The position numbers and the translations under genes are program-made. A stretch of 64,000 nucleotides of DNA from Phallus indusiatus (taxonomy: Eukaryota > Basidiomycota > Agaricomycetes > Phallales > Phallaceae): positions 186,001-250,000 of the forward strand of contig JAQFWX010000024.1 of assembly GCA_027605045.1 (NCBI GenBank), in the 5' to 3' direction. Below the pieces are notes generated by a model. That model did no database searches. It worked only from the letters and a program-made list of their open reading frames with translations, and was not told the DNA's origin. Below, piece by piece: positions 21,720 through 52,696 of the stretch (within the stretch, counting starts at the first letter, position 1; the number at the start of each line of letters is the position of its first letter).

Positions 21720-22036
21720 TGTAACGTTTCGTTACTTTTTATAGTGTACCGCTTGCGGTACACAGTTTATATCACGCTGTAGTTTCACGCCACAAGTAAC
21801 AGACCAAAGTGCTGTATTTTCTTTGTGGAGTAAAACAAGTTGCGCGTGCTGAATCAGCACGCGCGTAGCTACTACTAATGTATAGTTATTACATAATGGC
21901 TCGCCGCGCCGCAGCCAGAGGCGTTAAGCGCCTCTGTTATTAGAGTAAGTAATAGTAACTACTGCAGAGGGCGAAGCCCTCTGCATATGCCTAAGTGGCA
22001 TATACTCAATCCACCGCATGTGGTGGATCCGTTACA
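21720..22036 (-). repeat. Element A 3' LTR (317 bp)
   Basis: TGTAACG...GTTACA. It is a chain of perfect inverted repeats: 21721-21735 (6-bp arms), 21744-21763 (9), 21842-21864 (about 10) and others around the CAGAGGCG, GCAGAGGGC, ATATGCC and TCCACC stems. Compared with the 5' copy it lacks 4 bp in the CTCGCCGCGG palindrome. A TATAAAAAG box lies near its sense-strand 3' end. Confidence 0.93.
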
Positions 22037-22098
22037 TCCTCCCCTTGTGACTTGGACTCCAAGTCATAGGATCGCGAAGAGGAAGCATCTGACTGTAA

Positions 22099-22713
22099 TC
22101 AGTCAGAGGGATTGCTGTAGTCAATCTCCATGCTCTCCGAGGCACTCGGATGCGGTGCGTCAAGGTCCTCAGGGGGCCTCAACAATTCCTCGTCCGTCAT
22201 CTGAATTGGGACGGACGGGGAGTAAACCTTATTAGGCGGGCCTGCCACAATACTGGCAGGTGATGCCGACGCATGGACGGCGGGGGCGGCCGACTGAGTC
22301 GTACGCGCCTTTTTTGTTGGACGATCCAGTCCACGGCGCACGCGATAGTCATGCGCGATGCGATTAACATCTTCTCCATTGGCGTAACGTTGGAGAAGGG
22401 GCGCGATCACCTCAGTGACGCGTCTTGTCGTCGCTCCATTGGCGTGCATGGAGCGAATCACCTCCTCTATGGTAATGGAGGAGGGGGATTTGCACTCGAA
22501 GGAACGAGTGTAGCCTTCCATGAGCGTGGAAGGCAGGTGGGTGGAGGAATTACCCCTACCACCGAGAACTTCTTCCCACACAGTAAGTGCGGGGTCGAGG
22601 AGGCACTCAGCCGCCTTCTCGAGGAACTTGGCACGCACTTCACGAGTACGTGTGACTCGTTTGAGCCATGCGAACACCTCAACATCTTGAGGGTTTAATG
22701 ATCCATCCGACAT
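22099..22713 (-). CDS. Element A ORF4, unknown protein downstream of pol
   Basis: 204 residues, from the ATG at 22713 (MSDGSLNPQDVEVFAWLKRV) to a Pro/Ser-rich acidic tail (ASESMEIDYSNPSD). No motif recognised; the middle is helical with RVTEVIAPLLQRYANGEDVN, followed by a basic patch (RPTKKAR). It begins at a TAATG overlap with the stop of ORF3, placed in the loop of a perfect 8-bp hairpin (22704-22723), an arrangement that would suit termination-reinitiation. Its position after integrase is where an env or accessory gene would lie, but no signal peptide or membrane span is seen. Confidence 0.55.
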   Translation of the reverse strand: MSDGSLNPQDVEVFAWLKRVTRTREVRAKFLEKAAECLLDPALTVWEEVLGGRGNSSTHLPSTLMEGYTRSFECKSPSSITIEEVIRSMHANGATTRRVTEVIAPLLQRYANGEDVNRIAHDYRVRRGLDRPTKKARTTQSAAPAVHASASPASIVAGPPNKVYSPSVPIQMTDEELLRPPEDLDAPHPSASESMEIDYSNPSD

Positions 22714-23853
22714 TAGTCGGATGTAGGGAGGACCTGGTTAGGGTCCGCATTCCAAGTATTGATTAAATACTTGATCTCGGGGTGGATTAACTCTCCCGAG
22801 ATAAACACCACCGATGGATGGTTGGCGGCAGCCTCCATAGCTTCAAGCTTGGCTGTTTTCCTCGCCAGGCGGCGCTCCTTCATGGATCTGCGCCAACGAG
22901 TCCATGCGTATGAAATACGCATGTGAACCCCTCTGTCATCGGGGTACGTGAACACCGGGGGGTCGGTCCAAACCCGGGTTCCAATCTCGACGAACAATGG
23001 TTCGTCGAGGCTGCAGGTGTTATACCATGCAGTAGGATTGGGGGTGCCAGGCACCAGAGAATGATCCCCACTAACAGTGGGGTCGAAACCCTTGACGAAG
23101 AAGGGCCATGGGTCCCTATTGGAGTCCCATCCTGGCTTGGTCCGTGGATACGGACCAGAGGGTTTCCTTGGAGAAACCGGGGCAGCATCGCGAGAGCCCG
23201 ATGCCTTGGTTGCATCAGCGTAGGTACGCTGAGGCTTGTGTTTGGTGGACGACGCGATGGAGGCGTCGTCATCATAGTCATTATCATCGACTATGTCTTC
23301 CATGTCGTCGTCAGACGACATGTCGTTGAAGATATCAGGCAAAGGGGCTGCCTGGGATGGTTCAGGCGCTTTATCGGCCTGGTCTCTCGACCGCTTTTGG
23401 AGGTCGATGGGGTAGTCGACGGGCCTGCCGTCGACGCTGAACGTTCAAGTTCAGCAATGCGAGCTTTCAGCTCGCAGATACGACGATTCGCATCGTCGAG
23501 GTGGTCTGTCAAGGACTTGACGTCCTTTTCAGCTTCTTCTAGACGTTCGTCTAGATGATAGTACTCCCTCTTTATGAAGGGAAAGGCCTTGTAGACGGCC
23601 TGCTTGACCATATCATGGTCAAGGATGATTGCCCCGCTGCCAGCGGGGCCTGCCAGGTGACTGGCAAAGTCGTTGCACGCAGTGCAACTATCATTGTTAT
23701 GATAGACGGATATGCATCCGTCCATCGCGTCTAAGGTCCATTCGGACCTTTGCAGGGCCAGTTGAGCCTCTGCTTTTTGAACCTACTAACAGGTTGCGGC
23801 GTAGGCGACCGCGAGCGTGATCGTTCGCGTTGTTTTCCCTTGCTGTCAGGCAT
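22713..23853 (-). pseudogene. Element A ORF3, coiled-coil protein with apparent frameshifts
   Basis: Three consecutive frames form one protein-like series. The ATG at 23853 opens an RS-rich start (KGKQRERSRSRSPTPQP). From about 23770 a second frame gives a Cys-containing segment (NNDSCTACNDF) and a coiled coil (LDERLEEAEKDVKSLTDHLD, about 23450-23560). From about 23395 a third frame gives an acidic region (SSDDDMEDIVDDNDYDDD) and a folded-looking part (DPWPFFVKGFDPTVSGDHS, ISYAWTRWRRSMKERRLARK) ending PTSD at 22713. Function unknown. This segment contains the densest run of hairpins in the window (23603-23750). Confidence 0.5.
23603..23750. repeat. Run of seven perfect short inverted repeats
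   Basis: Perfect hairpins at 23603-23623 (9-bp arms), 23631-23649 (8), 23651-23666 (6), 23672-23688 (7), 23689-23704 (6), 23705-23722 (7) and 23733-23750 (7), with loops of 3-4 nt. They are almost end to end across coding DNA of ORF3. Comparable hairpins occur through the rest of element A, for example 22049-22065, 22089-22106, 22903-22923, 22986-23009 (10-bp arms), 23066-23082, 23215-23232, 23248-23270, 23301-23322, 26631-26653 (10), 40204-40224 (9) and 40625-40644 (8). Confidence 0.95.
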
Positions 23854-23934
23854 GGGGGGTGTGAGGGAGAAAAGACCGTGAACGGACTTTTGGGTTATAT
23901 ACTTGGGCGGCCTCATGGAGCGCCCAAGTGAAAA

Positions 23935-26212
23935 TTACCTCACCGCGTAGCAGTGAAGTGCCAGTGGATCCCTGTGGGTGGGATCTTCAAGCAGATCCCG
24001 AGTGGGATCTGGGCGCTTGTTGTTGGTCCGCGACTCTCCGTGATTGGATAGTCGTGGCAGCTGCCGAGGCTCGTTTACGCCTCGTAATTGCAAGTACTCG
24101 TCTAGAGCTTGCAAGTCCTTACAGTTACTGTAAGGTTCCCAAGTGGTATCCCCAAGGGTCCACTGGACTAGGAACTCGAGATCTTTCTCGCGAGTTCCAC
24201 TCCAGCGATGAGCTAGGAGTTCCTCGACGTGCCATTCAGCATCGTCTGGCTGTCCAAAGTCATACGCCGTGAGTGTATCGCGGCGTGGAAATCTCTCATC
24301 GTCGTTGGCGATGTGAGGTTTAATCAAATCCATGTGAAATACGGGATTTATGCGACGTTGCTTGAGCTCTTCAGAGAGCTCAAGTTTTACTGTGATATTG
24401 TCTTTAACGGACAATATTTTGTATGGTCCCACATAACGCGGGATCAACTTCTTAACTCTCCCCTTGGGGAGGTTGAGATTCCTCGTCGACAGATAGACGA
24501 GGTCACCCTCTTTGTACTCCGGTGCATCGCGCCGTGAGTTGTTCGCGTAGTGAGCCTGTTTAACGCGATTGGCTATGATAGCGTCATGCGCTATCATGAG
24601 GTTCCACTTTGCCTGTTGAGCAAAGTGTTGAACACCTTTGAATTTGGTGTTCGTCTCAATTTTCCTTCCCAAACTGGGAAGGTAGCCGTAGTTGAGTTCA
24701 AACGGCGCGAAACCAGTGGTTTCGCTGGTGCTGCTATTAATAGCAAACTCCACCATTGGGATCCTTTCGGCCCAATCTTTTGATCGTTCTGTATGACGGA
24801 ACGAAGTATTTGACCAATTGAGCGATTGGCTCGCTCGGTAGATCCATCCGTTTGTGGATGGAACGCCGTGGACATGAGCAATCGTGTCCCCATTAGGCGT
24901 TGCAGTTCCTGCCAAAACTTGGCAGTGAATCGTGCATCCCTGTCACTCACGATTGAGTCAGGGACACCGTGGAGTCTTACGACTTCACTGAGGTATAACC
25001 AGGCTGTGCCCTTGGCGGTCAGCTTGGTGGTGGTTGGCATCAGACGAACCATAGAGGTCAGTCTGTCAATCACGACGAATAGGAAGTCGTGGCCGTTTGA
25101 AACGGGTAATGGACCGACGAAGTCCATTCCAATCGATTCCCAAGGTTTATTGGGAATCGGGAGTTGTTTTAACAGACCACTGGGGTGATTATTCTCCCCT
25201 TTGTTGGTCTGGCACGTTCCGCAGGATCTGCAGAACGTATCGATGTCTTCAATCATCGATTTCCACCAGTACGCTTGTCTAACGTACTGAGACGTTTTGT
25301 AACGTCCAAAGTGCCCAACAATTTGGTGGGCCTCACTGATTATAATCTCAGTGATCCTCCTCCCCTTGTAAAATGCGTTATGGGGGACGCATAATACATC
25401 GCGGAGGAACTGATTCTTGGTAAAGATCAGTTGATTTTTAATTCCAAACGCCTTGTGAGCGTTTGGGTTGGCAAGAACCAGCTTAAATACTGGGTCCTTG
25501 TGATAACCTTGCTGTATCAGCAAGGTAAATTCAGCAAAGCCCTCAATTTTGGCTTTAAGAAGCTTGCTGTCTTGCTCTGCACTTAGAGCAAGTATATCCT
25601 CATCGGATTGCGCTTCTGTAATATCAGAAGGTGTAGTATTTGAGGGACCTTCAACTCGAGGTTCCTCTCGTACTCGTGAACGTGTAATAACGTTCACTCT
25701 CACTTCATCCCTTCTTTCGATGGGAAGATGATCCCCTTCGGGATCAAGTCTAACGTCAGCGTTGACGTATACCTCCGGAGGGTGAACCTCATCCGGAGTG
25801 TCCTCTTTGTAATAACGAGAGAGGCCATCGGCGACATTGTTAGTGACGCCCTTGACATGAATCGTCTCGTAATCAAAACGAGACAGGTATTCATACCACC
25901 GTGCTTGGCGCGGTGACATGCGAGGCTGGGTCTTGAAGTGGACCATGGCCTCGTTGTCCGTTACTAGGGTGAATCTACGCCCTAGTAGTTTGTCTTCCCA
26001 CTTAAGGAAGGCTTCAAGTACCGCGATGAGCTCATGCTCATGGGTGCGGTAGTTGTACTGAGCAGGGGTGAACTTCTTCGAGAGAAACCCTGCTGGCCTA
26101 CATGTTTGCCATGTAGGCCCTTGCCCATAATAGGCACCGACGCCACATTTAGAGCCGTCAGTTACGACCCAAATTGGATCTGGGTCGTCCACGTTAATAG
26201 GCTTCAAGATAG
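23935..26212 (-). pseudogene. Element A pol, part 2: RNase H, integrase, chromodomain
   Basis: Continues the RT frame after the solo LTR (API|LKPINVDD). RNase H: WVVTDGSKCGVGAYYGQGP, RTHEHELIAVLEAF, TDNEAM. Integrase: HHCC zinc region (HQIVGHFGRY... CRSCGTCQ), PWESIGMDFVGPLPVSNGHD, IVSDRDARFTAKFW, HPQTDGSTERANRS. At about 24783 the frame shifts by one base; the next frame supplies DWAERIPMVEFAINSS, a GPYKILSVKDN strand and a C-terminal chromodomain (AEWHVEELLAHR, EFLVQWTLGDTTWEPYSN). The chromodomain marks the element as a chromovirus-type Gypsy. Inactive because of the frameshift and the insertions. Confidence 0.88.
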
Positions 26213-26610
26213 TGTTAGGGCACGACCGTTCAGCGATGAGACTTAAGGATCGGACTGCTACTATAACCCAGTAACCCAGTCTATAATAGCGCAAGGAACT
26301 ACACATGCGCGCACGGAAGTATATATACATGTTTGCGTTATCTCTAACCAATAACTAACAGGTGCATTATCTGCCAATAGGAGGAGTCGGCAGTCGAGGA
26401 CATACGAACGACATAGAGAAGGAGGGAGATGTGACAGAATGAGAGCGAACGGAGAAACGGGGAATGTTCGGGAGAATACGCGAGGGATGAGTACGGACCG
26501 GCATACCGGGTACCGTATGACCGACGTAGAGCACGTAGGCATCTAAGTAGGTTATACTATACTACGCTAATATACTAGAATGACCGTGAATCCTGAGACG
26601 TACCCTGACA
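26213..26610 (-). mobile_element. Solo LTR of a distinct family, inside element A pol
   Basis: 398 bp with ends TGTTAGGG and CCCTGACA like the B family but otherwise different. Flanked by GATAG (26208-26212, 26611-26615). The A reading frame is restored when it is removed. Confidence 0.9.
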
Positions 26611-28683
26611 GATAGGAGCCTTTCGCGTGAGTGCTTTGATTGAATCAAAGCACTTGTTCAACAACGGCGTCCATACGAACGGTCTGTTGTTGTACGTACA
26701 CCCTGATAGTGGTGTAGTGTATGCGGCTACCCCTGGTAGGTATGCCGCAACGTATTGTACGAGGCCCAGAAATTTCTGGACATCGTTATACGTGCGTGGA
26801 GTTCTCCACTCACGTATTTTATCCATCTTCTCTTGATCGGGATGGATGCCATCATCGTCAATGATGTGGCCTAAGCACTCCAGTCGCTTAGAGTATAAGT
26901 CAACTTTACGACTACTCAGGTAAAGTTGTGCCTCTCGCAAACACGAGAAGGCGTTCTCTAGATGCTGCTGATGCAGATCTATTGTGTTTGAATAGACGAA
27001 CACGTCGTCTATGTATGCATCCGTCGAACGACCGATGCAGTCCCTAAAGATATGGGTCATCAGACGTTGAAACGTCGATGGGGCATTGCAGTCTCCTTGC
27101 TGCATGACATGGCTCTTGAAAGTGCCATAGATGGTGGCAAAGGTCGTCTTGTGGACGTCCTCTGGGACTATGCGTACCTGCTCGTACGCCTCAGTCAGAT
27201 CAATCTTTGATCTGTATTTGTGTCTCGCCACGTTCTGGCGGATGGTTTCCTGGTCAGGGAAGGGCGTTACGTCCTTCTCTGTGTTTTCGTTCTGCAGGCG
27301 CAGATCGAACACAGTCCGTAGTGCTAAGACCACGGCTCGTTTCTGCAGGCAAAGCATAGGGATTGCCTGTGTAGCTACAGTTGGTTCCCACCAACCTGCA
27401 GCTACGTATCGCTGAATCTTTTCAGCGAGTAGCGCTTTGAGCGCATCCGGGCACCTGGGAAGGTGATACCGGATCTTCTTATTGGGTTCAATAAGAGGAA
27501 TCTGATGATTCACTTCCCGAAACGGGGGAAGTCGGGAAGGGACAGGACCGAAAAGGTCACTGTACTTGTTCTTCCAGTACTCGATGAGTGCTGGGATATT
27601 CTCTTCCGTCATCTCAGGGACGGAGGAGCTGGAATGTTGGGTGCTGGCTAGCACCATCGCTCCTGTTTCAGGAGCGTGTCCAATCACATGGTGATTGGTG
27701 TCAATCACCTCGCCGTCGCGGGTGATTGTACCTCTGCTGAAATCTAGGCAGATGTTGTAGCGTCTCAGGAATGGGACGCCAATGATCACATCATAGTGAT
27801 CGATGTTGACGATGTCAAAGTACTCTTGGACATCAATACCTCCGAATTGGATTCGGGTGTACGTTCCATACTGGATGGAAGACTTGCTGCCCTTAACGGC
27901 CAGCTGCAGCACGACAGGTTTGTCGAGCTTGAAGGTTCTTGCCCCGGTGGCAAGAGAGAAATGAGGGGACATGATCATCCCCTGGCATCCACTGTCGACT
28001 AGGCAGTGAGCCAATTGGCCATTAACTGGCCAGAAACCCTCAATGGGTCTCGATGCGTTTCTGTCTCGTGTTGGGGCACGAGAGCTCACTCTAGCCGTAT
28101 GGTCATAGAGTGGTTCCTTGCTCGTAGCGAGCGAGGACTCATTGTCATCCAATGGCGATGACTTGTGGACCGCGAAGTGCAGTCTGCGCTCCTCATACTC
28201 GTCACCAATTGTGAGGAGCATGTATACACTGGGACCATTGTCATCATCGTCCCATTGGTATTGGATGCCCTCATCGTCCTCGACGGGGTCGTTGGTGGGC
28301 TCGTCTTGGGCCACCTCTTCCTCCACAGCTTGTTCAGCTGTGGGGTCTTCCACGTTCTCCTGCGGGGCATCGTTCGATGTCTCGCCAGAGGTCTCTTCAA
28401 CCTCTTCGATACGACCCACATTGGCTCGTACCTGTCTCAGTCTGGGGCACGCATTTCTGTAATGTCCCACCTGCCCACAGTTGAAACACGTGGGAGGGGT
28501 AGTGCTAGTGCGATTGTTCGTACTAGTTGGGGCAGTCCTAGCGAGCTGCGAGTTATGATTTCTCGAGCTTGATGAGCTCGAGGGGCGATTCCCCAATGGG
28601 GAATTGCCATTAGTTCGCGTCTCATGGGGACGCGCAGAGGGACCGTGGTTCCTCTGGTTCAAGCGCATATTGTTTGAATGCGC
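26611..28683 (-). pseudogene. Element A pol, part 1: zinc knuckle, protease, reverse transcriptase
   Basis: Single open frame broken off by element C at its start. It begins with the gag tail and a CCHC knuckle (CFNCGQVGHYRNACP), an acidic linker, an aspartic protease (LVDSGCQGMIMSP, about 27960-28000) and RT: KIRYHLPRCPDALKALLAEK, VFDLRLQNENTEKDVTPFPD, RSKIDLTEAYEQVRIVPED, TFKSHVMQQGDCNAPSTFQR and the catalytic YIDDVFVYSN (about 27000). The protease carries DSG in place of the common DTG. The frame runs into the solo LTR at 26610. Confidence 0.9.
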
Positions 28684-28822
28684 TGTCGCGCACCAAAATC
28701 TTCCTTAATTTGGTAATAGGGATGGTTCTTCCTAAAGCGGACTTCTAAATCTACTCTTCTTGAACAACTCACTTCCAGCTCGTTTGACACCCCAGTTCAC
28801 CCAAAAATCAACAAACAATAAA

Positions 28823-29500
28823 ATGTTCAATCTTCGACTTTCTTCTTCCATTTCCTTCAAACACCCCTCCCCTTCTTCCAATTCCCGAGAACCGTCCCCA
28901 GAAGAAGATGTTTTTCCCCCGGTCTTTCGTTATACTCATGATAGTCCTCGCACTCATGATTTGGATATCGAGACAACTCTATTTACATATTATTCGCCCA
29001 CTCCTATTCTCGAAATGGACTCAAAGACCTTACTCCCAGTTTATTCGCACAAGGTCCCTCGATCTATCGATAAGTGTAGAAGTTCAGATATCGTACACCC
29101 CTTCTTGGTTTTCGGAAAAGAAGTCTATATCGAGAAGGAACTAAGATGGTTCACAGTCACTCATGTTTATTCTACTCCAGAATCAGCCCTACAAGATTCA
29201 TATCGTGTTTGGTTAACAGCACAAGTCGGATTAGATTACATGATAATGGTCCTGGATGTTCCCAGCCGATGGATCCTATCAGCATGTAATCACCAACCTG
29301 CTCTAGGATTTTATCGATCACCCAATCCCATTCCTAAAGAACCACTAAACCCTTCTTTTCATGATTCCTCCCCTCCTCAATCTCCTACTACTTCCGAAAT
29401 GACCATACGACCTCCCCGATATCAACAAACCCTTCGCGCTCTTCGACGAGTCTGTTCTGGCCTCCTGGAACGAACCCGATCAGAATCAGGAGAACAATAG
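28823..29500 (+). CDS. Element C U3 ORF L1 (5' LTR copy)
   Basis: 225 residues from the ATG at 28823 (MFNLRLSSSISFKHPSPSSN). After a Ser/Pro-rich start comes a folded-looking region (LDIETTLFTYYSPTPILEMD, GKEVYIEKELRWFTVTHVYS, YMIMVLDVPSRWILSACNHQ). No known family recognised. The corresponding frame in the 3' LTR (37761 onward) is broken by one C less in a C run and ends differently (DINKPFALFDESVLASWNEP) owing to another C-run difference. Which version is authentic cannot be told here. The pattern DYMIMVLDVP...W resembles NYVLFLDAPW in L2, suggesting the two are distant relatives. Confidence 0.5.
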   Translation: MFNLRLSSSISFKHPSPSSNSREPSPEEDVFPPVFRYTHDSPRTHDLDIETTLFTYYSPTPILEMDSKTLLPVYSHKVPRSIDKCRSSDIVHPFLVFGKEVYIEKELRWFTVTHVYSTPESALQDSYRVWLTAQVGLDYMIMVLDVPSRWILSACNHQPALGFYRSPNPIPKEPLNPSFHDSSPPQSPTTSEMTIRPPRYQQTLRALRRVCSGLLERTRSESGEQ

Positions 29501-29607
29501 AGAATAAAAGGAATACTACAAGAGAAGTTTCGCACCTATCCATTCACCTAAAAACATCCTTCTTGTTTCGGAGCTTAAATTCTTTTCAACTTTTGTCTTT
29601 TTCACCA

Positions 29608-30165
29608 TTATGTCCATCCAACCTATTGGCTATCGCACACTTTCCATCATTCCATTTCCCTTTTATCCCAATTTTAATTCTCCCCTCCATATAGAAGACA
29701 TGAAAACTTTCAGACTATGGTTCGCGAATATCAATTGGAGAGCGACGAAGTAGAAGTGGAAGAAGATAATCCCTGGCCACGATACGCTAATCCAGCACTC
29801 GAGTTTCGGTATTTTTACGACGATCTACAATTACCCGATGAAGTCAAAGTAGACGAAAACGTTCATATACCGATTATGCAAGCATCGTATACTCTGATCA
29901 GGGCCCTCGTATCACATCGCCCTGGGATTCTCATTTGGCGTCTTATTTTCTATCGACCTGCCTTATTCCACAATTATGTTCTCTTTCTAGACGCTCCCTG
30001 GGATGTTTTTGTAGAACCCCTCCCCACCAGCCTACAACTCCATTGCCAGAATATGAAGAACCCGAAGAACCTGCCCCCGATGCCCTCGACTACGTACTAA
30101 TCGAAATCGCATGCGACCTATGCAAATTATACCAAGACCTAGTCAACGAAGAAGATTAGAATAGT
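29608..30165 (+). pseudogene. Element C U3 ORF L2 (5' LTR copy, frames broken)
   Basis: Counterpart of the intact frame at 38546-39103. Three C-run differences (in the stretches TTCTCCCC, GAACCCC and GATGCCC) split it into pieces, the longest from about 29717 to 30100. Confidence 0.6.
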
Positions 30166-31345
30166 ATCTATCGATCAAAACACCATACGATATAACTAAG
30201 ATCTCCCCTTGGCCTATGCTGAGCTCCATGCTGATCTGGTGCGCGATCCGAGGATACTAAGCATAGCCTTAGGATTCATGAATGTATCATATTCATGACG
30301 AAGACGATCCTATCGATGGATGACCGATCAGTAAGAAGATTAGGATGGTAACGATGCGATTCAGGATAAAGAGGCAGCGCGGGAAGAGTCGGGTGCCAGT
30401 TCTGACAAAGGCTGTGTCTTAGGCCGGTTTTGTTGGTTTTTCTTTTGTTCTTTTGTTTGGGTTTCATCATTTCTCCTATTGATTTGTGATATCACTCTTT
30501 TTGTTGTAATTGTATTACTCATTCCTCTCTCGCACTCCCCATTCCATATTTCTTTTGTTCCCTTTTGTTCTTTTTGTTTCTTTCTATTTGTCATCTTGGT
30601 GAACGATGAATAATCGTCTTACCAATGCTATGTTTCTTGAAAGGTATAAATACTGCATGTAAATACTTGTAACAGCAGCAATCTACCGATACGGGTTGTC
30701 TCACAGTTTAAGTCCAGTTCAGTTTAAGTCAAGCTCAGTTCAAGTTCAAGTCAAGTTTCGTCTCTAGTCTAATTCTACGCTCACATCTTTATCTTTGGAT
30801 TAACTCTGAGTGAGGTCTCGGAGTATAAACTAGCGATTTTCATTTCAATTCTATTGTCGCTTCACTAACTCGCAGAAGGATAACTGTCATCATTTGATTG
30901 TAGATCCTCCATACTAAGTCGCAACCCAAGTCTTTTGCCGACGCCTGTTCATTATATCACTTACACATTTGCATACGATCTCTCCTAGTCGTTGCAGTTG
31001 TTGTTGGTGTTTTGTCTGTGTTGGTTTCGATATCAGCGCATACATCCCCACATCCTCATTCCCCATCTACCCGTTCTCTCATTACCCGAAATCAGCACCA
31101 GGACCCGCTCCACGGTAGACTAACGACCTCTATAATCAAATATCTAGTAGTTATTCCGATCACATATAGCCGGCATACACAAAGCTATATTCATCGGATC
31201 GTTACAAAAGTGGCTGCCCCAGAGAGGCCACTAGTCTAAGCTGCTTTCACATTCATCCGCAACCAACCATCACAACAACATCCCATCTCCTTATCTAACC
31301 GACATCTCATTCATACTTCCATTCCCCTGACCACTCTATCCCAAT

Positions 31346-34228: not shown

Positions 34229-37200
34229 ATTCATCCTTTTCTGACCCTTATAATATTCGTTTCTCCATCTCCCTATTTATTTCGCTTCCTATTTATGAAC
34301 CCGGTGACGACTCGAACTTTATCCCCAATCACTTTATTTATAGGCTCCTTTTAAAACATTATGAAGAAAATCCCGAATATTATCCTCAATTTTCCGACAT
34401 TTTAACTGCATACAAGACCGTCGACAAGAAGATCCGGCCCGTGCCAGCAATACTTCCCCAGGATTGTCTTGTGACGAGAAGATTTCCCGAAGATCCCCTT
34501 ATTTCCCTTACTCCCTTATCCCCTCATCCGCCGACATTTATTCCATCATCCAAACTCACCGCAGAACGCCTCCGAATACTCCGCATAAATGATTCAGGCT
34601 TTCTTTGGCCAGAAGAAGAAAAACTATTCATCTCCGTCTTCCAACAAAATGAATCTGTACTCGCTTTCAACGAAACAGAACGAGGAACTCTCCGGTCAGA
34701 TTATTTTTCCGATTACATTATCCCTGTAGTACAGCATATACCTTGGATAAAGAAACCAATCCCTGTACCTCCAGGAATTCGAACACAAGTCATCGAAGCG
34801 TTGAAGAAGAAACTTGACATTGGAGTCTACGAATATAGTCAAGCATCTTATCGAACTGCCATGTTTTTCATCAAGAAGACCGACGGAGGAATTCGTCAGA
34901 TTATCGATCATCAACCCCTTAATTCAGTCACAATTCGAGATGCAGGAATGCCTCCAAACACAGATGAAATGTTAGAACCCTTCACAGGCGCTTCAGTCTA
35001 TTCTAGCTTTGATCTATTATCCGGATATGACGCACGCAAGATCCATGTCAAGAGTCGAGACCTTACGTCATTTCATACACCATTAGGACTTCTACGCTCT
35101 ACAGTTCTTCCTCAAGGATTTACCAATTCAGTCGCTGAATTTCAAAATTGCACTTCGTTCATCTTACAACCCGAATTTCCAACTAAAGCAAGCGTTATGA
35201 TCGATGACGTTGGTATTCAAGGACCACATACACGTTACGAGCAAGCCGATGGAACATTCGAAGTCATTCCTCAGAACCCTGGAATTCGACGTTTTATTTG
35301 GGAACATGCCGAAGATGTTCATCGTATCCTTCACAGACTCAGTCATGCCGGCGCTACAATCTCTCCGAAGAAGTCAAAAATAGCGCAACCCGAAATCGTG
35401 CTTATTGGACAGAAGTTGACTTATACCGGACGATTACCAGACGAGAAGCGTGTTAAGAAGATTCAAACCTGGCCGCCTCCTACTTCAGTTACTCAAGTTC
35501 GTCAGTTTTTAGGACTTTGTGGAACAATGCGCATTTGGATCAAGAATTATTCTGCACGATCGCGACCACTCTCAGAATTAGTTCGAAAAGAAGTACCTTT
35601 CGAATGGACTTCGGTTCGACAAGCTGCATTTGAAGACTTGAAGAATGAGATTGCAAATTCCCCCGCACTTGTTCCTATCGACTATTCCTCACCACACCCC
35701 GTTATTCTTGCAGTAGACACTTCAGTCATTGCAATCGGATTTATTTTGTATCAGATGGATTCTGAAGGCCGAAGAAGACCTGTTCGTTTTGGATCCCTCC
35801 CTATTTCCGCAACCGAAGCAAAGTATAGCCAAGCTAAACTCGAGTTATATGGATTGTATCGCGCACTCAAGGCTTGTCGCTATTACATTGCCGGTCTACT
35901 CAATTTTATTGTAGAAGTCGATGCATCTTACATCAAATCTATGATCAACAATCCAGATATCGCTCCTAACGCTACGCTTAACCGATGGATTGAAGGAATT
36001 TTGCTATACCATTTCCAGCTAAAACATGTCCCAGCAGAATCACACAAAGGACCAGACGCATTATCCCGACGACCACCATTACCCGAAGATTGGAACGAAG
36101 AAGAAGCTCACGAGAGCGAAAGTGAAAATGAAGAAAATCACAAAAACACAGAATATGCCCTATTTCTTTCTCATTCTTTTTCCCCTTCTCAGACTCTTAA
36201 TTTAAGTTCAGGGTGGTTGCTCGCAATCAACAGCAAACGAATAGATGACGAGCAGCTTCACCACATTTTTCAATTTCTTTCTCATTTTATCCTGCCTCCC
36301 TTCGATTCTCCCTCTCATAAGAAAAGTTTTATTCGAAAATCACAAAAATTCTTTGTTCAGGACAATTTATTTTTCAAAAAGCACCCCCTTCATCATTTGC
36401 GTGTAATTTTAGATAGAGATCACAGGAAAACATTACTCAAGATGGCCCACGACGACTTAGGACACCGAGGAGGATTTGCGACATACTGCCACATCTCCTT
36501 ACGCTACTACTGGCCTACAATTCGAGAAGAAGTCCATGAATTTTGTCGATCATGTCACCCCTGCCAACTTCGTTCCACGATCAAGATGCATATACCCATC
36601 ACTATTTCTCATCCGACCTCGCTTTTTACCAAAGTTTACCTTGATATTATGCTCATGACACCCGCTCAAGGTTATCGATATGTCATAGCAGCTCGAGACG
36701 ATCTATCAGGAGCAGCTGAAGGACGTAAACTCAAGAAAGCCACCGCACGTTCAGTAGCACAATTTATTTTCGAGGAACTTATTTGCCGATATGGAGTTAT
36801 TGAAGAAATCGTCACTGATAATGGACCAGAAACTAAAGCTGCAACAGAAGAACTCATGCGACGCTACAATATCAAGCAAATTCGAATTTCACCTTACAAT
36901 TCCCAAGCCAATGGAGTCGTAGAGCGAGGACACTTCACGATTCGAGAAGCCTTAATCAAGTCATGTCAAGGCAATATTTCAAAATGGCCTGAGCTCATTC
37001 CTCATGTGTTTTTCGCTGATAGAGTTACTGTTCGACGAGCTACTGGTTTTTCGCCCTATTATCTACTTTATGGTCAACATCCTACGCTCCCCCTCGACCT
37101 CTTCGAAGCTACATTTTTGGTCTCTGGATTCGACAGAAATCTTGCCACAGAAGATCTAATTGCCTTACGAGTTCAGCAAATCAGGAAAATGGACAATGAT

Positions 37201-37590
37201 GTTTCACGAGCTGAAAAGATCCTTCATCGCAGTCGACTTCACAGCAAGGAAGCCTTTGAGAAGAAATTTGCACAGCGCATACAGCGAGAAGAATTTAAGT
37301 CTGGAGATTTAGTTTTGGTTCGGAATTCACGCATTGAGAAGGAACTTGACCGAAAGACTAAACCACGCTATATTGGTCCTTACGAAGTTGTCAAGAGAAC
37401 ACTCCGAGGAACATATATTTTAAAGGAATTAGATGGAACAGTATCCCGAGTTGCAATTGCAGGGTTTAGGTTAATTCTCTATTATCCCAGAGTTGATGAT
37501 GAAGTTTCTATTGAACCGTTGCAAGAAGAAGAAGCAGAAGAAGCCGATGACCAGGTTGTGGAAGATTTTGGAGATGATGAAGATTTCTGA
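34084..37590 (+). CDS. Element C pol: RT, RNase H, integrase
   Basis: Open frame of 1168 codons; the first real pol residues come after the gag overlap. RT: YRTAMFFIKKTDGGIRQIID, SSFDLLSGYDARKIHVKSRD, VLPQGFTNSVAEFQN, catalytic SVMIDDVGIQGP, where Met replaces the usual Tyr/Phe before the DD pair. RNase H: PVILAVDTSVIAIGFILYQM, AKLELYGLYRALKACRYYIA. Integrase: HDDLGHRGGF with CRSCHPCQLR zinc ligands, DIMLMTPAQGYRY, VTDNGPETKAATEEL, PYNSQANGVVERGHF. The tail has the GPYEVVKR strand but no chromodomain, unlike A and B. No frameshift is seen, so the element may be intact. Confidence 0.92.
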   Translation: MENKCRTIQRCERRCTSPPKGFSLGRQSSSEDRWTYHREECTRPSPGIDSSFSDPYNIRFSISLFISLPIYEPGDDSNFIPNHFIYRLLLKHYEENPEYYPQFSDILTAYKTVDKKIRPVPAILPQDCLVTRRFPEDPLISLTPLSPHPPTFIPSSKLTAERLRILRINDSGFLWPEEEKLFISVFQQNESVLAFNETERGTLRSDYFSDYIIPVVQHIPWIKKPIPVPPGIRTQVIEALKKKLDIGVYEYSQASYRTAMFFIKKTDGGIRQIIDHQPLNSVTIRDAGMPPNTDEMLEPFTGASVYSSFDLLSGYDARKIHVKSRDLTSFHTPLGLLRSTVLPQGFTNSVAEFQNCTSFILQPEFPTKASVMIDDVGIQGPHTRYEQADGTFEVIPQNPGIRRFIWEHAEDVHRILHRLSHAGATISPKKSKIAQPEIVLIGQKLTYTGRLPDEKRVKKIQTWPPPTSVTQVRQFLGLCGTMRIWIKNYSARSRPLSELVRKEVPFEWTSVRQAAFEDLKNEIANSPALVPIDYSSPHPVILAVDTSVIAIGFILYQMDSEGRRRPVRFGSLPISATEAKYSQAKLELYGLYRALKACRYYIAGLLNFIVEVDASYIKSMINNPDIAPNATLNRWIEGILLYHFQLKHVPAESHKGPDALSRRPPLPEDWNEEEAHESESENEENHKNTEYALFLSHSFSPSQTLNLSSGWLLAINSKRIDDEQLHHIFQFLSHFILPPFDSPSHKKSFIRKSQKFFVQDNLFFKKHPLHHLRVILDRDHRKTLLKMAHDDLGHRGGFATYCHISLRYYWPTIREEVHEFCRSCHPCQLRSTIKMHIPITISHPTSLFTKVYLDIMLMTPAQGYRYVIAARDDLSGAAEGRKLKKATARSVAQFIFEELICRYGVIEEIVTDNGPETKAATEELMRRYNIKQIRISPYNSQANGVVERGHFTIREALIKSCQGNISKWPELIPHVFFADRVTVRRATGFSPYYLLYGQHPTLPLDLFEATFLVSGFDRNLATEDLIALRVQQIRKMDNDVSRAEKILHRSRLHSKEAFEKKFAQRIQREEFKSGDLVLVRNSRIEKELDRKTKPRYIGPYEVVKRTLRGTYILKELDGTVSRVAIAGFRLILYYPRVDDEVSIEPLQEEEAEEADDQVVEDFGDDEDF

Positions 37591-37621
37591 CTAGGGACAG
37601 TCATTTCAAGTTCAGGGTGGA

Positions 37622-40145
37622 TGTCGCGCACCAAAATCTTCCTTAATTTGGTAATAGGGATGGTTCTTCCTAAAGCGGACTTCTAAATCTACTCTTCTTG
37701 AACAACTCACTTCCAGCTCGTTTGACACCCCAGTTCACCCAAAAATCAACAAACAATAAAATGTTCAATCTTCGACTTTCTTCTTCCATTTCCTTCAAAC
37801 ACCCCTCCCCTTCTTCCAATTCCCGAGAACCGTCCCCAGAAGAAGATGTTTTTCCCCGGTCTTTCGTTATACTCATGATAGTCCTCGCACTCATGATTTG
37901 GATATCGAGACAACTCTATTTACATATTATTCGCCCACTCCTATTCTCGAAATGGACTCAAAGACCTTACTCCCAGTTTATTCGCACAAGGTCCCTCGAT
38001 CTATCGATAAGTGTAGAAGTTCAGATATCGTACACCCCTTCTTGGTTTTCGGAAAAGAAGTCTATATCGAGAAGGAACTAAGATGGTTCACAGTCACTCA
38101 TGTTTATTCTACTCCAGAATCAGCCCTACAAGATTCATATCGTGTTTGGTTAACAGCACAAGTCGGATTAGATTACATGATAATGGTCCTGGATGTTCCC
38201 AGCCGATGGATCCTATCAGCATGTAATCACCAACCTGCTCTAGGATTTTATCGATCACCCAATCCCATTCCTAAAGAACCACTAAACCCTTCTTTTCATG
38301 ATTCCTCCCCTCCTCAATCTCCTACTACTTCCGAAATGACCATACGACCTCCCGATATCAACAAACCCTTCGCGCTCTTCGACGAGTCTGTTCTGGCCTC
38401 CTGGAACGAACCCGATCAGAATCAGGAGAACAATAGAGAATAAAAGGAATACTACAAGAGAAGTTTCGCACCTATCCATTCACCTAAAAACATCCTTCTT
38501 GTTTCGGAGCTTAAATTCTTTTCAACTTTTGTCTTTTTCACCATTATGTCCATCCAACCTATTGGCTATCGCACACTTTCCATCATTCCATTTCCCTTTT
38601 ATCCCAATTTTAATTCTCCCCCTCCATATAGAAGACATGAAAACTTTCAGACTATGGTTCGCGAATATCAATTGGAGAGCGACGAAGTAGAAGTGGAAGA
38701 AGATAATCCCTGGCCACGATACGCTAATCCAGCACTCGAGTTTCGGTATTTTTACGACGATCTACAATTACCCGATGAAGTCAAAGTAGACGAAAACGTT
38801 CATATACCGATTATGCAAGCATCGTATACTCTGATCAGGGCCCTCGTATCACATCGCCCTGGGATTCTCATTTGGCGTCTTATTTTCTATCGACCTGCCT
38901 TATTCCACAATTATGTTCTCTTTCTAGACGCTCCCTGGGATGTTTTTGTAGAACCCCCTCCCCACCAGCCTACAACTCCATTGCCAGAATATGAAGAACC
39001 CGAAGAACCTGCCCCCGATGCCCCTCGACTACGTACTAATCGAAATCGCATGCGACCTATGCAAATTATACCAAGACCTAGTCAACGAAGAAGATTAGAA
39101 TAGTATCTATCGATCAAAACACCATACGATATAACTAAGATCTCCCCTTGGCCTATGCTGAGCTCCATGCTGATCTGGTGCGCGATCCGAGGATACTAAG
39201 CATAGCCTTAGGATTCATGAATGTATCATATTCATGACGAAGACGATCCTATCGATGGATGACCGATCAGTAAGAAGATTAGGATGGTAACGATGCGATT
39301 CAGGATAAAGAGGCAGCGCGGGAAGAGTCGGGTGCCAGTTCTGACAAAGGCTGTGTCTTAGGCCGGTTTTGTTGGTTTTTCTTTTGTTCTTTTGTTTGGG
39401 TTTCATCATTTCTCCTATTGATTTGTGATATCACTCTTTTTGTTGTAATTGTATTACTCATTCCTCTCTCGCACTCCCCATTCCATATTTCTTTTGTTCC
39501 CTTTTGTTCTTTTTGTTTCTTTCTATTTGTCATCTTGGTGAACGATGAATAATCGTCTTACCAATGCTATGTTTCTTGAAAGGTATAAATACTGCATGTA
39601 AATACTTGTAACAGCAGCAATCTACCGATACGGGTTGTCTCACAGTTTAAGTCCAGTTCAGTTTAAGTCAAGCTCAGTTCAAGTTCAAGTCAAGTTTCGT
39701 CTCTAGTCTAATTCTACGCTCACATCTTTATCTTTGGATTAACTCTGAGTGAGGTCTCGGAGTATAAACTAGCGATTTTCATTTCAATTCTATTGTCGCT
39801 TCACTAACTCGCAGAAGGATAACTGTCATCATTTGATTGTAGATCCTCCATACTAAGTCGCAACCCAAGTCTTTTGCCGACGCCTGTTCATTATATCACT
39901 TACACATTTGCATACGATCTCTCCTAGTCGTTGCAGTTGTTGTTGGTGTTTTGTCTGTGTTGGTTTCGATATCAGCGCATACATCCCCACATCCTCATTC
40001 CCCATCTACCCGTTCTCTCATTACCCGAAATCAGCACCAGGACCCGCTCCACGGTAGACTAACGACCTCTATAATCAAATATCTAGTAGTTATTCCGATC
40101 ACATATAGCCGGCATACACAAAGCTATATTCATCGGATCGTTACA
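37622..40145 (+). repeat. Element C 3' LTR (2524 bp)
   Basis: Same as the 5' LTR apart from five one-base differences, all in runs of C. The full-length RNA would end within it, so its U3 frames would be the last cistrons of the genomic transcript. Confidence 0.92.
38546..39103 (+). CDS. Element C U3 ORF L2 (3' LTR copy, intact)
   Basis: 185 residues from the ATG at 38546 (MSIQPIGYRTLSIIPFPFYP). An acidic stretch (ESDEVEVEEDNPWP) precedes a region EFRYFYDDLQLPDEVKVDEN, then LIWRLIFYRPALFHNYVLFL and DAPWDVFVEPPP. The end is basic (RLRTNRNRMR, QRRRLE). No recognised family, signal peptide or zinc motif. It lies in U3, upstream of the LTR TATA box. Confidence 0.55.
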   Translation: MSIQPIGYRTLSIIPFPFYPNFNSPPPYRRHENFQTMVREYQLESDEVEVEEDNPWPRYANPALEFRYFYDDLQLPDEVKVDENVHIPIMQASYTLIRALVSHRPGILIWRLIFYRPALFHNYVLFLDAPWDVFVEPPPHQPTTPLPEYEEPEEPAPDAPRLRTNRNRMRPMQIIPRPSQRRRLE

Positions 40146-40149
40146 GCGC

Positions 40150-42370
40150 TTGTCTGGCCAAGTTGGTGTGGCTGCTGCTGCTGCCACTACCACTACTGCC
40201 ACTACTACCCGTTGGACGGGTAGTGCTTCCTTGGGAGGCCGTTATCGACCTCCGCTTCTTGAACGCCTCCTCTACTTGGATGGCGAGTGCAAGTAGTTCC
40301 TTAGCAGACATCTGCTCAGGACTACCGCCTCTGAATGCTACTTCAGCGGCGAGGCTGTGGTTCAGCCCATCAAGGAACCTCCTCCTGAATGTATAATCAT
40401 CAGGAGGGTGCGCTAGTCTGTTGGCTAGCGTGAGTAACGCACTCATGTATTCGTGTACAGAGTGCGATCCTTGCCGTTCGCGTTCGAACTGGATCGCCAC
40501 CTCACTTCTCGAGTGGGGTGGGAGGAATCGTTCGTGTAGTCTCCGTAGCGGGGACTAGGGTCCACTCATGCATGGGACGAGTACCTCGTTCCACGTTCTG
40601 GGTGAACCACTCTTGTGCCAACCCTTCTAGGCGCATGCCTAGAAAGGAGAGTTGCTCTGCTTGGCTGACTTCTCCAAGCAGGTGGTTTACGCGTAGCCAG
40701 CGTAACAGACCCGACACAAAGTTGTCGAAGTCCTCGGCTCTGGACGAGCCGCTATATGTGGGCGGGAGCCCTATCTTCGCTCCTGCTTTCGCAAGGGGCG
40801 AGTTGCCTGGCATCATATCCCTGTTTGCAATCAGGGCTTCTTGAACCATGGCTATGACGCCCTCAAGTACTGGGCGTCGTCGTTGAAAGGGTCAAATCTT
40901 TCAACACGTTCCTCATCGAACGGTGTGGCGCGGAGATCCTCGCCATACTGTGGTCGACGAGCGTATCCATCATATGGATCGATACGTGGTGCTTCTGCTG
41001 GGTTAGCAGATGCTTGCCTCTGCCCATTAGGCTCGGCACTTTGCCTTGGCAGTTGTCTGCCAGGGGGTGATGCTCTGTCGTCTGGACGACTTGAGCTTGT
41101 GGCTGGGTCTGGCGATGGGATCCTATCGCCAGTGATGGCATTATAGCCACCTTCAAGCACACGAGCATGGCGGACCGCGTTCATACGCGCGTCCCTCGCG
41201 ATGCGGATCCTATTTTGGATGATCCGCATTTGCTGCTCGTTGGGAGTGTCAGTCTCGAGAGAGCCTGCTACAGCTTCCTCGAGCGCATTAGTGGCCGTCT
41301 CCACAGCCCGTGCATGCGTACGGATTGCTCTGTCGGAGAGTAGCCTTGCTATCCTCTGGTATTCGAGGGCAGCTTGGGCGACCACTTCAGCATCCTCTCG
41401 TGGGGTGCTCCATTTCGCGACTGGTTCACCAGTCGCGTGGCTATCTCGGTATCGATATAGTCACCAACCGCGTCAGACTCGTGAGGCGGTTGTCTTGTGA
41501 AACGGTGCATTCGTCTCACTGTTTCTCTGCCAGCCTCTATTTCGGGGCCGGGGTTTCTAGGAGCTGTATATGCCGTAGCTCCTTGAGTAGGAGGTCTATC
41601 AGGACGCGTACTCGGTCCTGGGGTAACGTTCTGAGAACGTTGTCTGGTGCCTGTTGGTGCAGGCTCAGGGGATTGGGAATTACCAGCTGTCGCTGGTGAC
41701 GGACTGGCATATGTCGGTCCCGTCGGTGTAACAAACCTAGCTTGTGGGGCTGGGTTTGTGAATTGATATGCAAGGCGACTCGTCGGCCCTGCTGGTCTAG
41801 GACGAGTAGATCCAGTACCTGATGCAGGCGGATCTACCGCTCTGCTTTTCCTTTGTCAGAGCGTGCTCGTGCAGGCTCTGCTTCAGGAGACAAGTCTGTT
41901 GTCCTGACTTGGTCCCTGTCAGTGCCTGTAGTAACAGGCTCTGGCTCAGGGTTTTCAACTCCTGCGTTGACATTCTCGATTAATCGAGCTAGTCTCTGCA
42001 GTTCTGACGGGGACATATTCCCGTTCCTCACGCCATCGAGTAACGATGCGTGAACAGCGTTCATTGTCTCGTCCCTTCGGATGGACCTGTCGCTCCTGAC
42101 GCTAAGTCTGGAGCGACCAGATGCTACGGACTTTACGTCCTCATCTTCTTCATCAGCGAGTTGGGGCTGATGTTCCATCGTCTGCGACGCAGGACGAGTG
42201 GGATTTTGGGTTGATGCATCCACTCTCTCCCATGTGGATGACTCTCCTTCGAGGGTTCCTTCCCTAGACGGGTCGGGATTTTCGGTTTGCACTGGCCCGG
42301 GTGGGTCAGGCTGATTGGAATCAGGTGTACCACGATCTGGTGCACTCTGACTCCTGGTAGTAGGAGCCAT
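40150..42370 (-). pseudogene. Element A gag (frameshifted)
   Basis: The ATG at 42370 opens MAPTTRSQSAPDRGTP, a Pro/Ser/Glu-rich N terminus with SGRSRLSVRSDRSIRRDE. The frame stops at 41834. A second frame carries a Pro/Thr-rich stretch and HERMLKWSPK-like sequence down to about 41385. A third (41385-40852) gives VAQAALEYQRIARLLSDRAI; then the capsid part: VSGLLRWLRVNHLLGEVSQA, EGLAQEWFTQNVE, FERERQGSHSVHEYMSALLT, FRRRFLDGLNHSLAAEVAFR. The end runs into element C at 40149 and continues at 28683. At least two frameshifts make it non-functional as read. Confidence 0.75.
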
Positions 42371-42455
42371 TGAATCCTCCTGTAATAGGAAGGGTTAATT
42401 TCGCTTGCTTAATACAGCGGCGGGTTGTTTTTAACGCCTTTGGTGTTAAAAAAGA

Positions 42456-42776
42456 TGTAACGTTTCGTTACTTTTTATAGTGTACCGCTTGCGGTACACA
42501 GTTTATGTCACGCTGTAGTTTCACGCCACAAGTAACAGACCAAAGTGCTGTATTTTCTTTGTGGAGTAAAACAAGTTGCGCGTGCTGAATCAGCACGCGC
42601 GTAGCTACTACTAATGTATAGTTATTACATAATGGCTCGCCGCGCCGCGGCGAGCCAGAGGCGTTAAGCGCCTCTGTTATTAGAGTAAGTAATAGTAACT
42701 ACTGCAGAGGGCGAAGCCCTCTGCATATGCCTAAGTGGCATATACTCAATCCACCGCATGTGGTGGATCCGTTACA
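42456..42776 (-). repeat. Element A 5' LTR (321 bp)
   Basis: Same as the LTR at 21720 except for a few changes, notably a complete CTCGCCGC...GCGGCGAG palindrome here. No TGG primer site follows; the first internal bases (42455 downward) form another hairpin with 8-bp arms (TTTTTAAC/GTTAAAAA). Confidence 0.92.
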
Positions 42777-45442: not shown

Positions 45443-45842
45443 TGTCAGGGTACGCTACCGCGTCCCCTCATTTTTCTTCATTTATTATCATCGGTGTATA
45501 TTTCCCTTTACTTTATTTATATTTCCCATATATTATCTCCACCCTCCGTTTGCTCCCTCTGTCTCTATTCCACTTTCTCTACTTGCGCGCGTCGCGCGCT
45601 CGTACCCGGCGTGACGCCGTAGGCGTCACGTCGCTTATGTTCGGTTTGGGCGTCTGGCACTTAGCTGTGTCAGGGCCGCACGCCGCGCTATCGTTTTTCA
45701 TGTATATAGTCGCTGTCCCTAGAGTGAGGGTCCCTAAGCTTGTTCTCTTAGGATCCCCTCCCTCTAGGTGAGTAGTTAGTTCTCTCCCAATATATTTACC
45801 TTAGGATCCCCTCCCTCTAGTGTGAGCTGAGTAGCCCTAACA
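45443..45842 (+). mobile_element. Solo LTR, B family, inserted in the B 3' LTR (opposite orientation)
   Basis: TGTCAGGG...CCCTAACA, flanked by GAGAC (45438-45442, 45843-45847). Confidence 0.93.
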
Positions 45843-45963
45843 GAGACGGAACAAGGAAACGGAAAGTGAAAGTAATGGACGGGAAATGTAAATGGAATAG
45901 AAATAAATATATACCGATGATAATAAATAAGGAAAATGAGGGGACGCGGTAGCGTACCCTGAC

Positions 45964-46362: not shown

Positions 46363-46380
46363 CTGACACCACCCCCCCCT

Positions 46381-51763: not shown

Positions 51764-51913
51764 GAGAGAGAGAGAAAGGAAAAGGGGTTTTTAAGATGGG
51801 GCAGAGGGGTCGGTTATAGACAGGACTCGAAGGAAGAATACGACACTGCGATAGTCGGTGTCGAGCGCGATTTTTCGATAACGAGTGTCGATAAAAACGA
51901 CCAGTCTGCGAGT

Positions 51914-51928
51914 AGAAGCTTGTTCTAC
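51914..51928 (-). other. Element B self-priming primer-binding site
   Basis: The internal sequence right after the 5' LTR (minus strand) is GTAGAACAAGCTTCTAC, without the TGG of tRNA primer sites. Its AGAACAAGCTT (51926-51916) is the exact reverse complement of 11 nt in the LTR (AAGCTTGTTCT, minus strand 52035-52025), which starts 33 nt after the first base of a TATATA box (52068-52063). An RNA starting there could prime its own reverse transcription, as in Tf1/sushi-type elements. Confidence 0.7.
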
Positions 51929-52483: not shown

Positions 52484-52696
52484 TAAATGACAACAGGGGT
52501 AGTTATACATACTCAAATTTTCATTAATTGTTAGAATTTAATTATGACTTTAGAATCTAGTACTAAAATGTATCTACGTCATAATCTAACCTGGGGAAAA
52601 TGTGTTCACCCAAGCAGGTTGCTATACCGGAAGGAAACTTCTTAAGAATTGACTGACATCTCTGATCCATTACCTCAAGATTGATAGATCATTAAG

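What the first reader, a model, noticed from the sequence alone, without database searches (positions are those of the whole stretch)
21720..42776. A retrotransposon built of chained short perfect inverted repeats
Seen: in element A, LTR and coding DNA alike contain perfect inverted repeats of 6-11 bp with loops of 1-10 nt every few tens of bases. In 23603-23750 seven follow one another nearly end to end. They occur in gag (40204-40224, 40625-40644), RT (26631-26653), integrase, ORF3/ORF4 (22986-23009, 23301-23322) and the LTR (21744-21763, 21842-21864). They stop at the borders of elements C and the solo LTR nested inside A, and the stretches of B and C I sampled lack them. Conserved protein motifs persist, so the repeats must be fitted by synonymous or tolerated changes. 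Inference: either selection for genome-wide RNA structure (as described for some RNA viruses) or repeated template-switch correction of quasi-palindromes during reverse transcription. I know of no LTR element described in these terms.
Basis: partly seen in the sequence, partly recalled or inferred. Interest (0 to 1): 0.88.

Follow-up and report, generated by a model that had tools for sequence, protein, structure and literature searches.

The report
Retrotransposon saturated with small hairpins
A jumping element of a fungus-like genome carries a perfect little hairpin roughly every 60 bases through its genes and ends, and the silent changes that separate its copies tend to keep old hairpins and make new ones, so something seems to favour self-pairing itself rather than any particular hairpin.

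Summary
Element A (21720-42776; Ty3/Gypsy chromovirus, minus strand) has about 10-25 perfect inverted repeats per kb against 2-3 in dinucleotide shuffles, and 101 against about 16 in codon shuffles of seven coding segments. They stop at the nested elements; element B and the flanks show only a mild excess. The pol region has at least 35 near-complete copies at 95-100% identity. A sister family, A2 (64-76% amino-acid identity in pol), is also hairpin-rich, but its hairpins sit elsewhere: density is inherited, positions are not. A2 stems are 6 bp with only chance extension; A has an excess of exactly 8 bp. Between A lineages, synonymous changes break about half as many hairpins as matched random ones (43 vs 95) and create 2.5 times as many (43 vs 17.5). 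This favours selection for local pairing. Template-switch correction is weakly supported: no templated blocks, few compensated pairs, one inverted loop. Plain sense-RNA folding is only partly supported: G-U is not preferred over A-C and positions are not conserved. Function is inferred: shielding from host RNAi, or folding/packaging. Ten open-access library searches listed no such element.

The parts
21720..22036 (-). left LTR (3' LTR in sense) of element A; 317 bp, hairpin-rich; 4-base gap inside one long palindrome relative to the right LTR
22099..23782 (-). remains of a second ORF (599 codons stop to stop in other copies, coiled-coil-like region, no Pfam match over its cut-off, no protein relative found), split by frame changes in this copy; hairpin-rich
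   Evidence: ORFs; open in L060/L061; no homologue; Pfam; related ORF in A2
23935..26195 (-). RNase H, integrase, SH3_Tf2-1 and chromodomain part of pol, hairpin-rich
   Evidence: hairpin list
26213..26610 (.). nested solo-LTR-like insert (TGTTAGG...CCTGACA, GATAG at both sides), no inverted repeats
   Evidence: borders read from printed sequence
26630..28683 (-). zinc knuckle, protease and reverse transcriptase part of pol, hairpin-rich
28684..40145 (+). nested element C (Gypsy-type LTR element, LTRs about 2.5 kb, 99.8% alike), inserted at the edge of an A hairpin; inverted repeats below chance
40146..42455 (-). gag region of A, frames broken in this copy, about 11 inverted repeats per kb
42456..42776 (-). 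right LTR (5' LTR in sense) of element A, 321 bp, hairpin-rich
46381..51790 (-). element B (Gypsy with chromodomain), comparison element: mild excess against dinucleotide shuffles, none clear against codon shuffles

Best explanation
Element A belongs to a clade of Ty3/Gypsy chromoviruses (families A and A2) whose whole length is under selection for a high density of short, local, Watson-Crick hairpins (stems of about 6-8 bp, loops mostly of 3-13 nt). Selection acts on having such hairpins, not on where they are: point mutations at mostly synonymous sites break and make them, lineages that keep the density leave more copies, and over long times every hairpin is replaced. Shown: the density, its absence at this level from the other loci tested, the turnover of positions, and the non-random synonymous changes in A. 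Inferred: that the benefit is to the element's nucleic acid as a folded, inaccessible molecule, most likely by making its RNA, or the small RNAs cut from it, poor substrates for the host's RNAi, with packaging or folding of genomic RNA as the next candidate.
For: Density against dinucleotide and codon shuffles; low folding energy. Shared by many copies at different places, so not an assembly accident. A2 has the density but shares 1, 1, 0 and 1 hairpin centres with A in four comparisons, as by chance (0.5-0.8), in a codon alignment of pol. Synonymous third-position changes, 14 A comparisons: hairpins lost 43 vs 94.9 random, gained 43 vs 17.5; all changes, 25 comparisons incl. A2 and LTR: lost 109 vs 217.9, gained 93 vs 48.2; the count was kept better than the random mean in 35 of 36 comparisons (below 0.05 in 25). 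Shared but not singleton third-position variants are depleted in A stems. Amino-acid identity of A to A2 does not differ between stems and outside, as expected if pairing is fitted through silent sites. The host genome has Piwi-domain matches.
Against: G-U pairs are not preferred over A-C inside stems on the sense strand, which selection on sense RNA alone would predict. The 6-bp stems of A2 are not GC-richer than chance stems (0.498 vs 0.509). Compensated pairs are few (8 vs about 4 random in 19 overlapping comparisons). The singleton/shared contrast is p=0.053 in A and p=0.34 when A2 is pooled. A2 shows little present upkeep: lost 17 vs 22.3, gained 10 vs 7.4; L039 to L056 falls from 23 to 16, below random. 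The comparisons share branches and were chosen by me, so their sums are not independent tests. B and flanks also have a mild excess. No expression or small-RNA data.
Confidence: 0.5

Rival explanations
1. Template-directed mutation during reverse transcription: the nascent strand folds back, copies itself for a few bases and returns, so quasi-palindromes are turned into perfect hairpins faster than point mutation destroys them; no benefit is needed.
For: Stems are perfect Watson-Crick without preference for G-U over A-C; stem lengths are quantised (6 bp in A2 with chance extension only; an excess of exactly 8 in A); one LTR hairpin has its 3-base loop inverted in L066, GAA against TTC in 6 other LTRs; template switching is reported to create and maintain RNA hairpins (PMC8794818, abstract and opening text seen).
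Against: Differences between copies are mostly single transitions (187 of 221 variants, counted); clusters of three or more changes in 18 pairs are not copies of a neighbouring reverse complement except in short self-palindromic words and alignment ends; 1 loop inversion in 466 loop positions; 8 compensated pairs against about 4 random although about half of the expected hairpin losses are missing; amino-acid identity not significantly lower in stems.
Confidence: 0.25
2. Selection or process at DNA level, or on both strands: hairpins matter in single-stranded cDNA (perhaps the minus strand) or in double-stranded DNA, where Watson-Crick pairs count and sense G-U does not.
For: In A stems of 8 or more positions with one internal mismatch, A-C on the sense strand (= G-T on the minus strand) is enriched 12-fold against 3.6-fold for G-T; loops A-rich on sense, i.e. 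T-rich on the minus strand; LTRs as rich as coding parts.
Against: Hairpin energies show no strand preference with DNA parameters in A and a small one for the sense strand in A2; whole-window folding is lower on the sense strand in A; part of the A-C excess may be mutational: singletons in stems are 56 WC-to-AC against 30 WC-to-GU (A and A2 pooled); A2 shows no A-C bias (3.5-fold for both).
Confidence: 0.15
3. Dispersed packaging or Gag-binding signals: many short stem-loops bound by the element's own Gag or its second protein.
For: Hairpins are many, small and position-free; the element has a zinc knuckle and a second ORF of unknown function in both families.
Against: No common loop word was seen on reading the list of 145 (no motif test was run); hairpins also fill the LTRs.
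Confidence: 0.07
4. Artefact or base composition.
For: A mild general excess in B and flanks, 3.3-4.1 vs 2.2-2.5 per kb.
Against: Dinucleotide and codon controls; most hairpins of the pol region occur in 27-30 of 30 aligned copies, 29 of them elsewhere in the genome; nested elements lack them.
Confidence: 0.01

Closest known systems
Ty3/Gypsy chromoviruses (Tf1/sushi type; type name recalled)
   Same: protease, RT, RNase H, integrase with SH3_Tf2-1 and chromodomain; TG...CA LTRs of about 320 bp; 5-bp target duplication
   Different: hairpin-saturated sequence; second ORF of about 590 codons after pol; element B and eight other RT loci of the same genome have no comparable excess
[quoted passage not shown]
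   Same: folding energy below shuffled controls all along coding sequence
   Different: here perfect local hairpins with preferred stem and loop sizes, no G-U preference over A-C, in an LTR element; positions turn over between sister families
Template-switch mutations that create and maintain RNA hairpins (PMC8794818, abstract and opening text seen)
   Same: perfect stems; one inverted loop seen
   Different: no multi-base templated changes found between copies; the paper's cases are RNA genes with conserved helix locations
Ty1 genomic RNA structure (PMC9503155, passages seen)
   Same: LTR element RNA with local structured regions
   Different: 11 well-structured regions covering about 19% of nuclear Ty1 RNA and palindromes PAL1/PAL2; the passages do not describe a chain of perfect inverted repeats

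Membership tests
Ty3/Gypsy chromovirus | pol order PR-RT-RH-IN with C-terminal chromodomain | tested here: met
Ty3/Gypsy chromovirus | LTRs and short target-site duplication | tested here: met
   ATAGT read on both sides
Ty3/Gypsy chromovirus | primer binding site or self-priming | not tested
   a hairpin lies directly inside the 5' LTR; no tRNA comparison made
GORS | folding energy below sequence-order controls along the genome | tested here: met
   z about -3.1 to -4.1 in A, -1.1 to -1.5 in A2
GORS | pairs behave as RNA pairs (G-U accepted) | tested here: not met
   in A, G-U about as enriched as most other mismatches and A-C most; in A2, G-U and A-C alike (about 3-fold), above most others at length >=7
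GORS | link to persistence or immune shielding | not testable with these tools
   no expression or small-RNA data
Template-switch hairpins | multi-base changes explained by copying a nearby reverse complement | tested here: not met
   clusters in 18 pairs; hits only in short self-palindromic words or alignment ends; one loop inversion in the LTR
Functional RNA structure at fixed places | positions conserved with compensatory changes | tested here: not met
   A vs A2 0-1 shared centres per comparison; 8 compensated pairs vs about 4 random in 19 comparisons

The most novel reading that the evidence does not exclude
A retroelement clade encodes itself in siRNA-sized self-complementary words: silent sites throughout gag, pol and a second ORF, and the LTRs, are selected so that many 20-odd-base pieces of either strand fold on themselves. 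Because only Watson-Crick pairs hold on both strands, G-U gains no preference, and loops and spans stay within small-RNA size. The element is thereby camouflaged against RNAi while free to drift in sequence.
Probability: 0.2. Interest if true: 0.92.

Novelty: new variant of a known kind. Interest (0 to 1): 0.8.

Why it matters
Selection for nucleic-acid structure is usually inferred from a few conserved folds or from folding energy. Here a whole mobile element is filled with countable perfect hairpins, in two sister families with different stem lengths and no more shared positions than chance, with dozens of copies in one genome. That makes it possible to test directly how pervasive structure arises and is kept (selection against templated mutation) and what it is for (escape from silencing, packaging, or a side effect of reverse transcription). 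It also warns that synonymous sites of retroelements may be far from neutral.

Tried and rejected
Conserved functional hairpins: rejected, A and A2 share 0-1 hairpin centres per comparison. A mechanism by insertion of small palindromes: rejected for pol, where A and L039 align over 699 residues of A's 708. Template switching as sole cause: no patches. Strand choice by hairpin energy: no signal in A, a small one for sense in A2 with DNA parameters; by whole-window folding: sense lower than antisense in A (p=0.0002) but not in A2; by loop composition: A-rich on sense; by mismatch type: A-C in A, pointing the other way. Left open.

The first singleton/shared counts on pol looked like depletion; widened to gag, pol, RH and A2 the contrast was not significant (p=0.34), and for A alone p=0.053. 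Sites in stems present in fewer than 30% of copies were left out of those 2x2 tables (printed as 'rare'). Of the 30 loci of A, 22 were used for gag, 27 for RH and 30 for pol, by coverage; 18 A2 loci were used. The pairs for the substitution-shuffle tests were chosen by me among divergent lineages and share branches.

Search of viral contigs: no relative. Protein search of the second ORF: none at E<=0.001 among 7998 candidates scored. A search of the genome with protein P0019, meant to find nearer outgroup families, never answered, so the hairpin density of families whose RT is 56-64% identical is unknown.
Full report
What was checked. The window is G000:C123:186001-250000 of an unnamed 67.2-Mb genome. 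Named relatives of element A's pol come from Trametes, Phanerochaete, Pisolithus and others, so the host is probably an agaricomycete (inference). Element A runs from 21720 to 42776 on the minus strand: two LTRs of 317 and 321 bp with ATAGT on both sides, pol with zinc knuckle, protease, RT, RNase H, integrase, SH3_Tf2-1 and chromodomain, and a second ORF between pol and the 3' LTR. Nested in A are element C (28684-40145, LTRs of about 2.5 kb at 99.8%) and a solo-LTR-like insert (about 26213-26610).

The hairpins are there. All eight named stretches hold inverted repeats as described. Counts per kb against dinucleotide shuffles: 20.0 vs 2.0, 17.7 vs 2.2, 9.8 vs 2.0 and 22-25 vs 3 for the ORF2/integrase part, pol, gag and LTRs; 1.1 vs 2.5 in C and 0 in the insert. 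B (3.5 vs 2.2) and flanks (3.3-4.1 vs 2.3-2.5) show a mild excess; B and two of three flanks exceed each of 20 shuffles. In 7 coding segments of A, codon shuffles that keep the protein give about 16 repeats where A has 101, and about 1.7 with arms of 8 or more where A has 36; the 4 segments of B and 2 of C stay within the range of their shuffles. Windows of 100-120 bases fold about 3-4 standard deviations below shuffles on either strand in A, 1.1-1.5 below in A2, and within 0.7 in B and C. A non-overlapping list (arm >=6, loop 3-13) has 145 hairpins in 8857 bases.

It belongs to a clade. In the genome 35 places match all (34) or all but 8 bases (1) of the 1951-base pol query at 95-100%, with 8 partial matches; 40 of 125 candidates were scored, so this is a lower bound. 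A second family, A2, is 64-76% identical in amino acids in four comparisons and has 10.6-11.3 repeats per kb in the 6 loci first fetched, against about 2 in shuffles. Eight other RT loci of the genome, the best matches to the RVT_1 profile, have 2.3-3.7 against 1.8-2.6.

Density is inherited, positions are not. In a codon alignment of pol, A shares 1, 1, 0 and 1 hairpin centres with four A2 loci where circular shifts give 0.5-0.8; third positions agree at only 35-39%. Residues in A's stems are about as conserved as others: 67% vs 63% identical with L039, 72% vs 77% with L042 and 68% vs 72% with L041, none significant. So much the same protein has been fitted with two unrelated sets of hairpins.

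Stem lengths are quantised. For loops of 3-9, exact arm counts (observed/shuffled) are, in A2, 5 bp 79/32.3, 6 bp 71/9.0, 7 bp 18/2.1, 8 bp 5/1.0; the ratio of one in four from 6 to 7 is what chance extension gives. In A they are 6 bp 48/9.3, 7 bp 28/2.2, 8 bp 31/0.1, 9 bp 7/0, 10 bp 5/0. In A the excess falls steeply beyond loops of 13 nt, with a weaker one to about 20; in A2 beyond about 10. A requirement met at a fixed number of pairs, or a templating step of fixed length, would do this; a simple reward for stability would not obviously. GC of A2's 6-bp stems is not raised (0.498 vs 0.509 in chance stems), while its 5-bp stems are somewhat GC-richer (0.547 vs 0.499).

Copies show upkeep. 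Among 30 copies of the pol region there are 221 variants, 187 of them transitions (counted). When the observed changes between two copies are placed at random on sites of the same base and codon position, hairpins fall; in nature they mostly do not. Of 36 such comparisons the real count exceeded the random mean in 35 and was beyond 95% of the simulations in 25: for example L009 to L035, 39 to 42 against 30.1 (0 of 500), and L033 to L012 in gag, 15 to 17 against 9.0 (0 of 500); the exception is L039 to L056 in A2, 23 to 16 against 19.0. With synonymous third-position changes only, matched to sites where the same change is silent, 14 comparisons of A lineages lose 43 hairpins against 94.9 and gain 43 against 17.5; 4 comparisons in A2 lose 17 against 22.3 and gain 10 against 7.4. 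The integrase/ORF2 region behaves as A pol (10 of 12 comparisons below 0.05; the other two have 5 differences), the LTR leans the same way (3 of 6 below 0.05). These comparisons share branches, so the sums are descriptive. Shared third-position variants are fewer in A stems (31 of 388 sites) than outside (137 of 1097), singletons are not (38 of 388, 95 of 1097); the 2x2 contrast is p=0.053 in A and p=0.34 with A2 included.

Against templated mutation. Of 466 hairpin-loop positions in six alignments one shows an inverted loop, GAA in one LTR against TTC in six. Clusters of three or more changes in 18 pairs are not copies of a nearby reverse complement, apart from short words that are themselves palindromic and alignment ends. 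If templating saved the roughly hundred hairpins that random change would have lost, many arms should have been changed together; compensated pairs number 8 in 19 comparisons against about 4 at random (summed). Single compensations do occur, with one-step intermediates in other copies (columns 1321/1328 and 1762/1776).

Which strand and what for. Selection on sense RNA predicts G-U in stems. In stems of 8 or more positions with one internal mismatch A has 20 A-C (1.6 expected) and 4 G-T (1.1); A2 has 6 (1.7) and 4 (1.2). Singletons in stems are also skewed to A-C (56 against 30), so part of this is mutation. Loops are A-rich on the sense strand (0.328 vs 0.269; A2 0.396 vs 0.310), as in many structured RNAs (recalled), but equally T-rich on the minus strand. 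Hairpin energies do not choose a strand in A, though whole windows fold slightly better on the sense strand in A. A demand that holds for both strands explains the lack of G-U preference and, with spans of 16-27 nt in A (5th-95th percentile), suggests small RNAs; the genome has 20 Piwi-domain matches, many of them exon pieces. This last step is inference and no expression data were available.

Verdict. Papers: PMC8794818 (abstract and opening text), PMC9784701 and PMC9503155 (passages); in ten library searches I saw titles and starts of abstracts, none describing such an element.

Noticed in passing
window 22099-23782; L060:865-2661; L061:880-2676: A second ORF of about 590 codons downstream of the chromodomain in A, with a related one in A2; coiled-coil-like region, no protein relative at E<=0.001 and no Pfam match over a cut-off.
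   Followed up: partly
LTR alignment; window about 21900-21925 and 42633-42660: The two LTRs of the window copy differ by a 4-base gap inside the longest palindrome, and L065 has a 3-base gap at the same palindrome, as if long perfect hairpins are prone to small deletions.
   Followed up: no
L066:2765-3087 (LTR): Loop TTC of an LTR hairpin is replaced by its reverse complement GAA, a small inversion between perfect arms.
   Followed up: yes
L041:1-91 (C139): A 5'-truncated A2-family pol begins directly after a piece 93% identical to the A-family LTR.
   Followed up: no
L033 and L034, gag and the first ~110 bases of the pol query: These copies are 91-92% identical to the window in gag but about 97% in pol, with a locally divergent stretch at the start of pol: mosaic copies, perhaps from recombination.
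   Followed up: partly
window 28700-39330: Element C has fewer short hairpins than its own shuffles (12 vs about 27; exact 6-bp arms 3 vs 12.2), the opposite of A.
   Followed up: no
window 1-21700, 45500-52000, 52000-64000: Element B and the flanks have a mild excess of short inverted repeats over dinucleotide shuffles.
   Followed up: no
window 55942-60013: Minus-strand ORFs with WD40-type repeats and a NACHT/NPHP3-type NTPase, as in fungal NLR-like genes (recalled).
   Followed up: no
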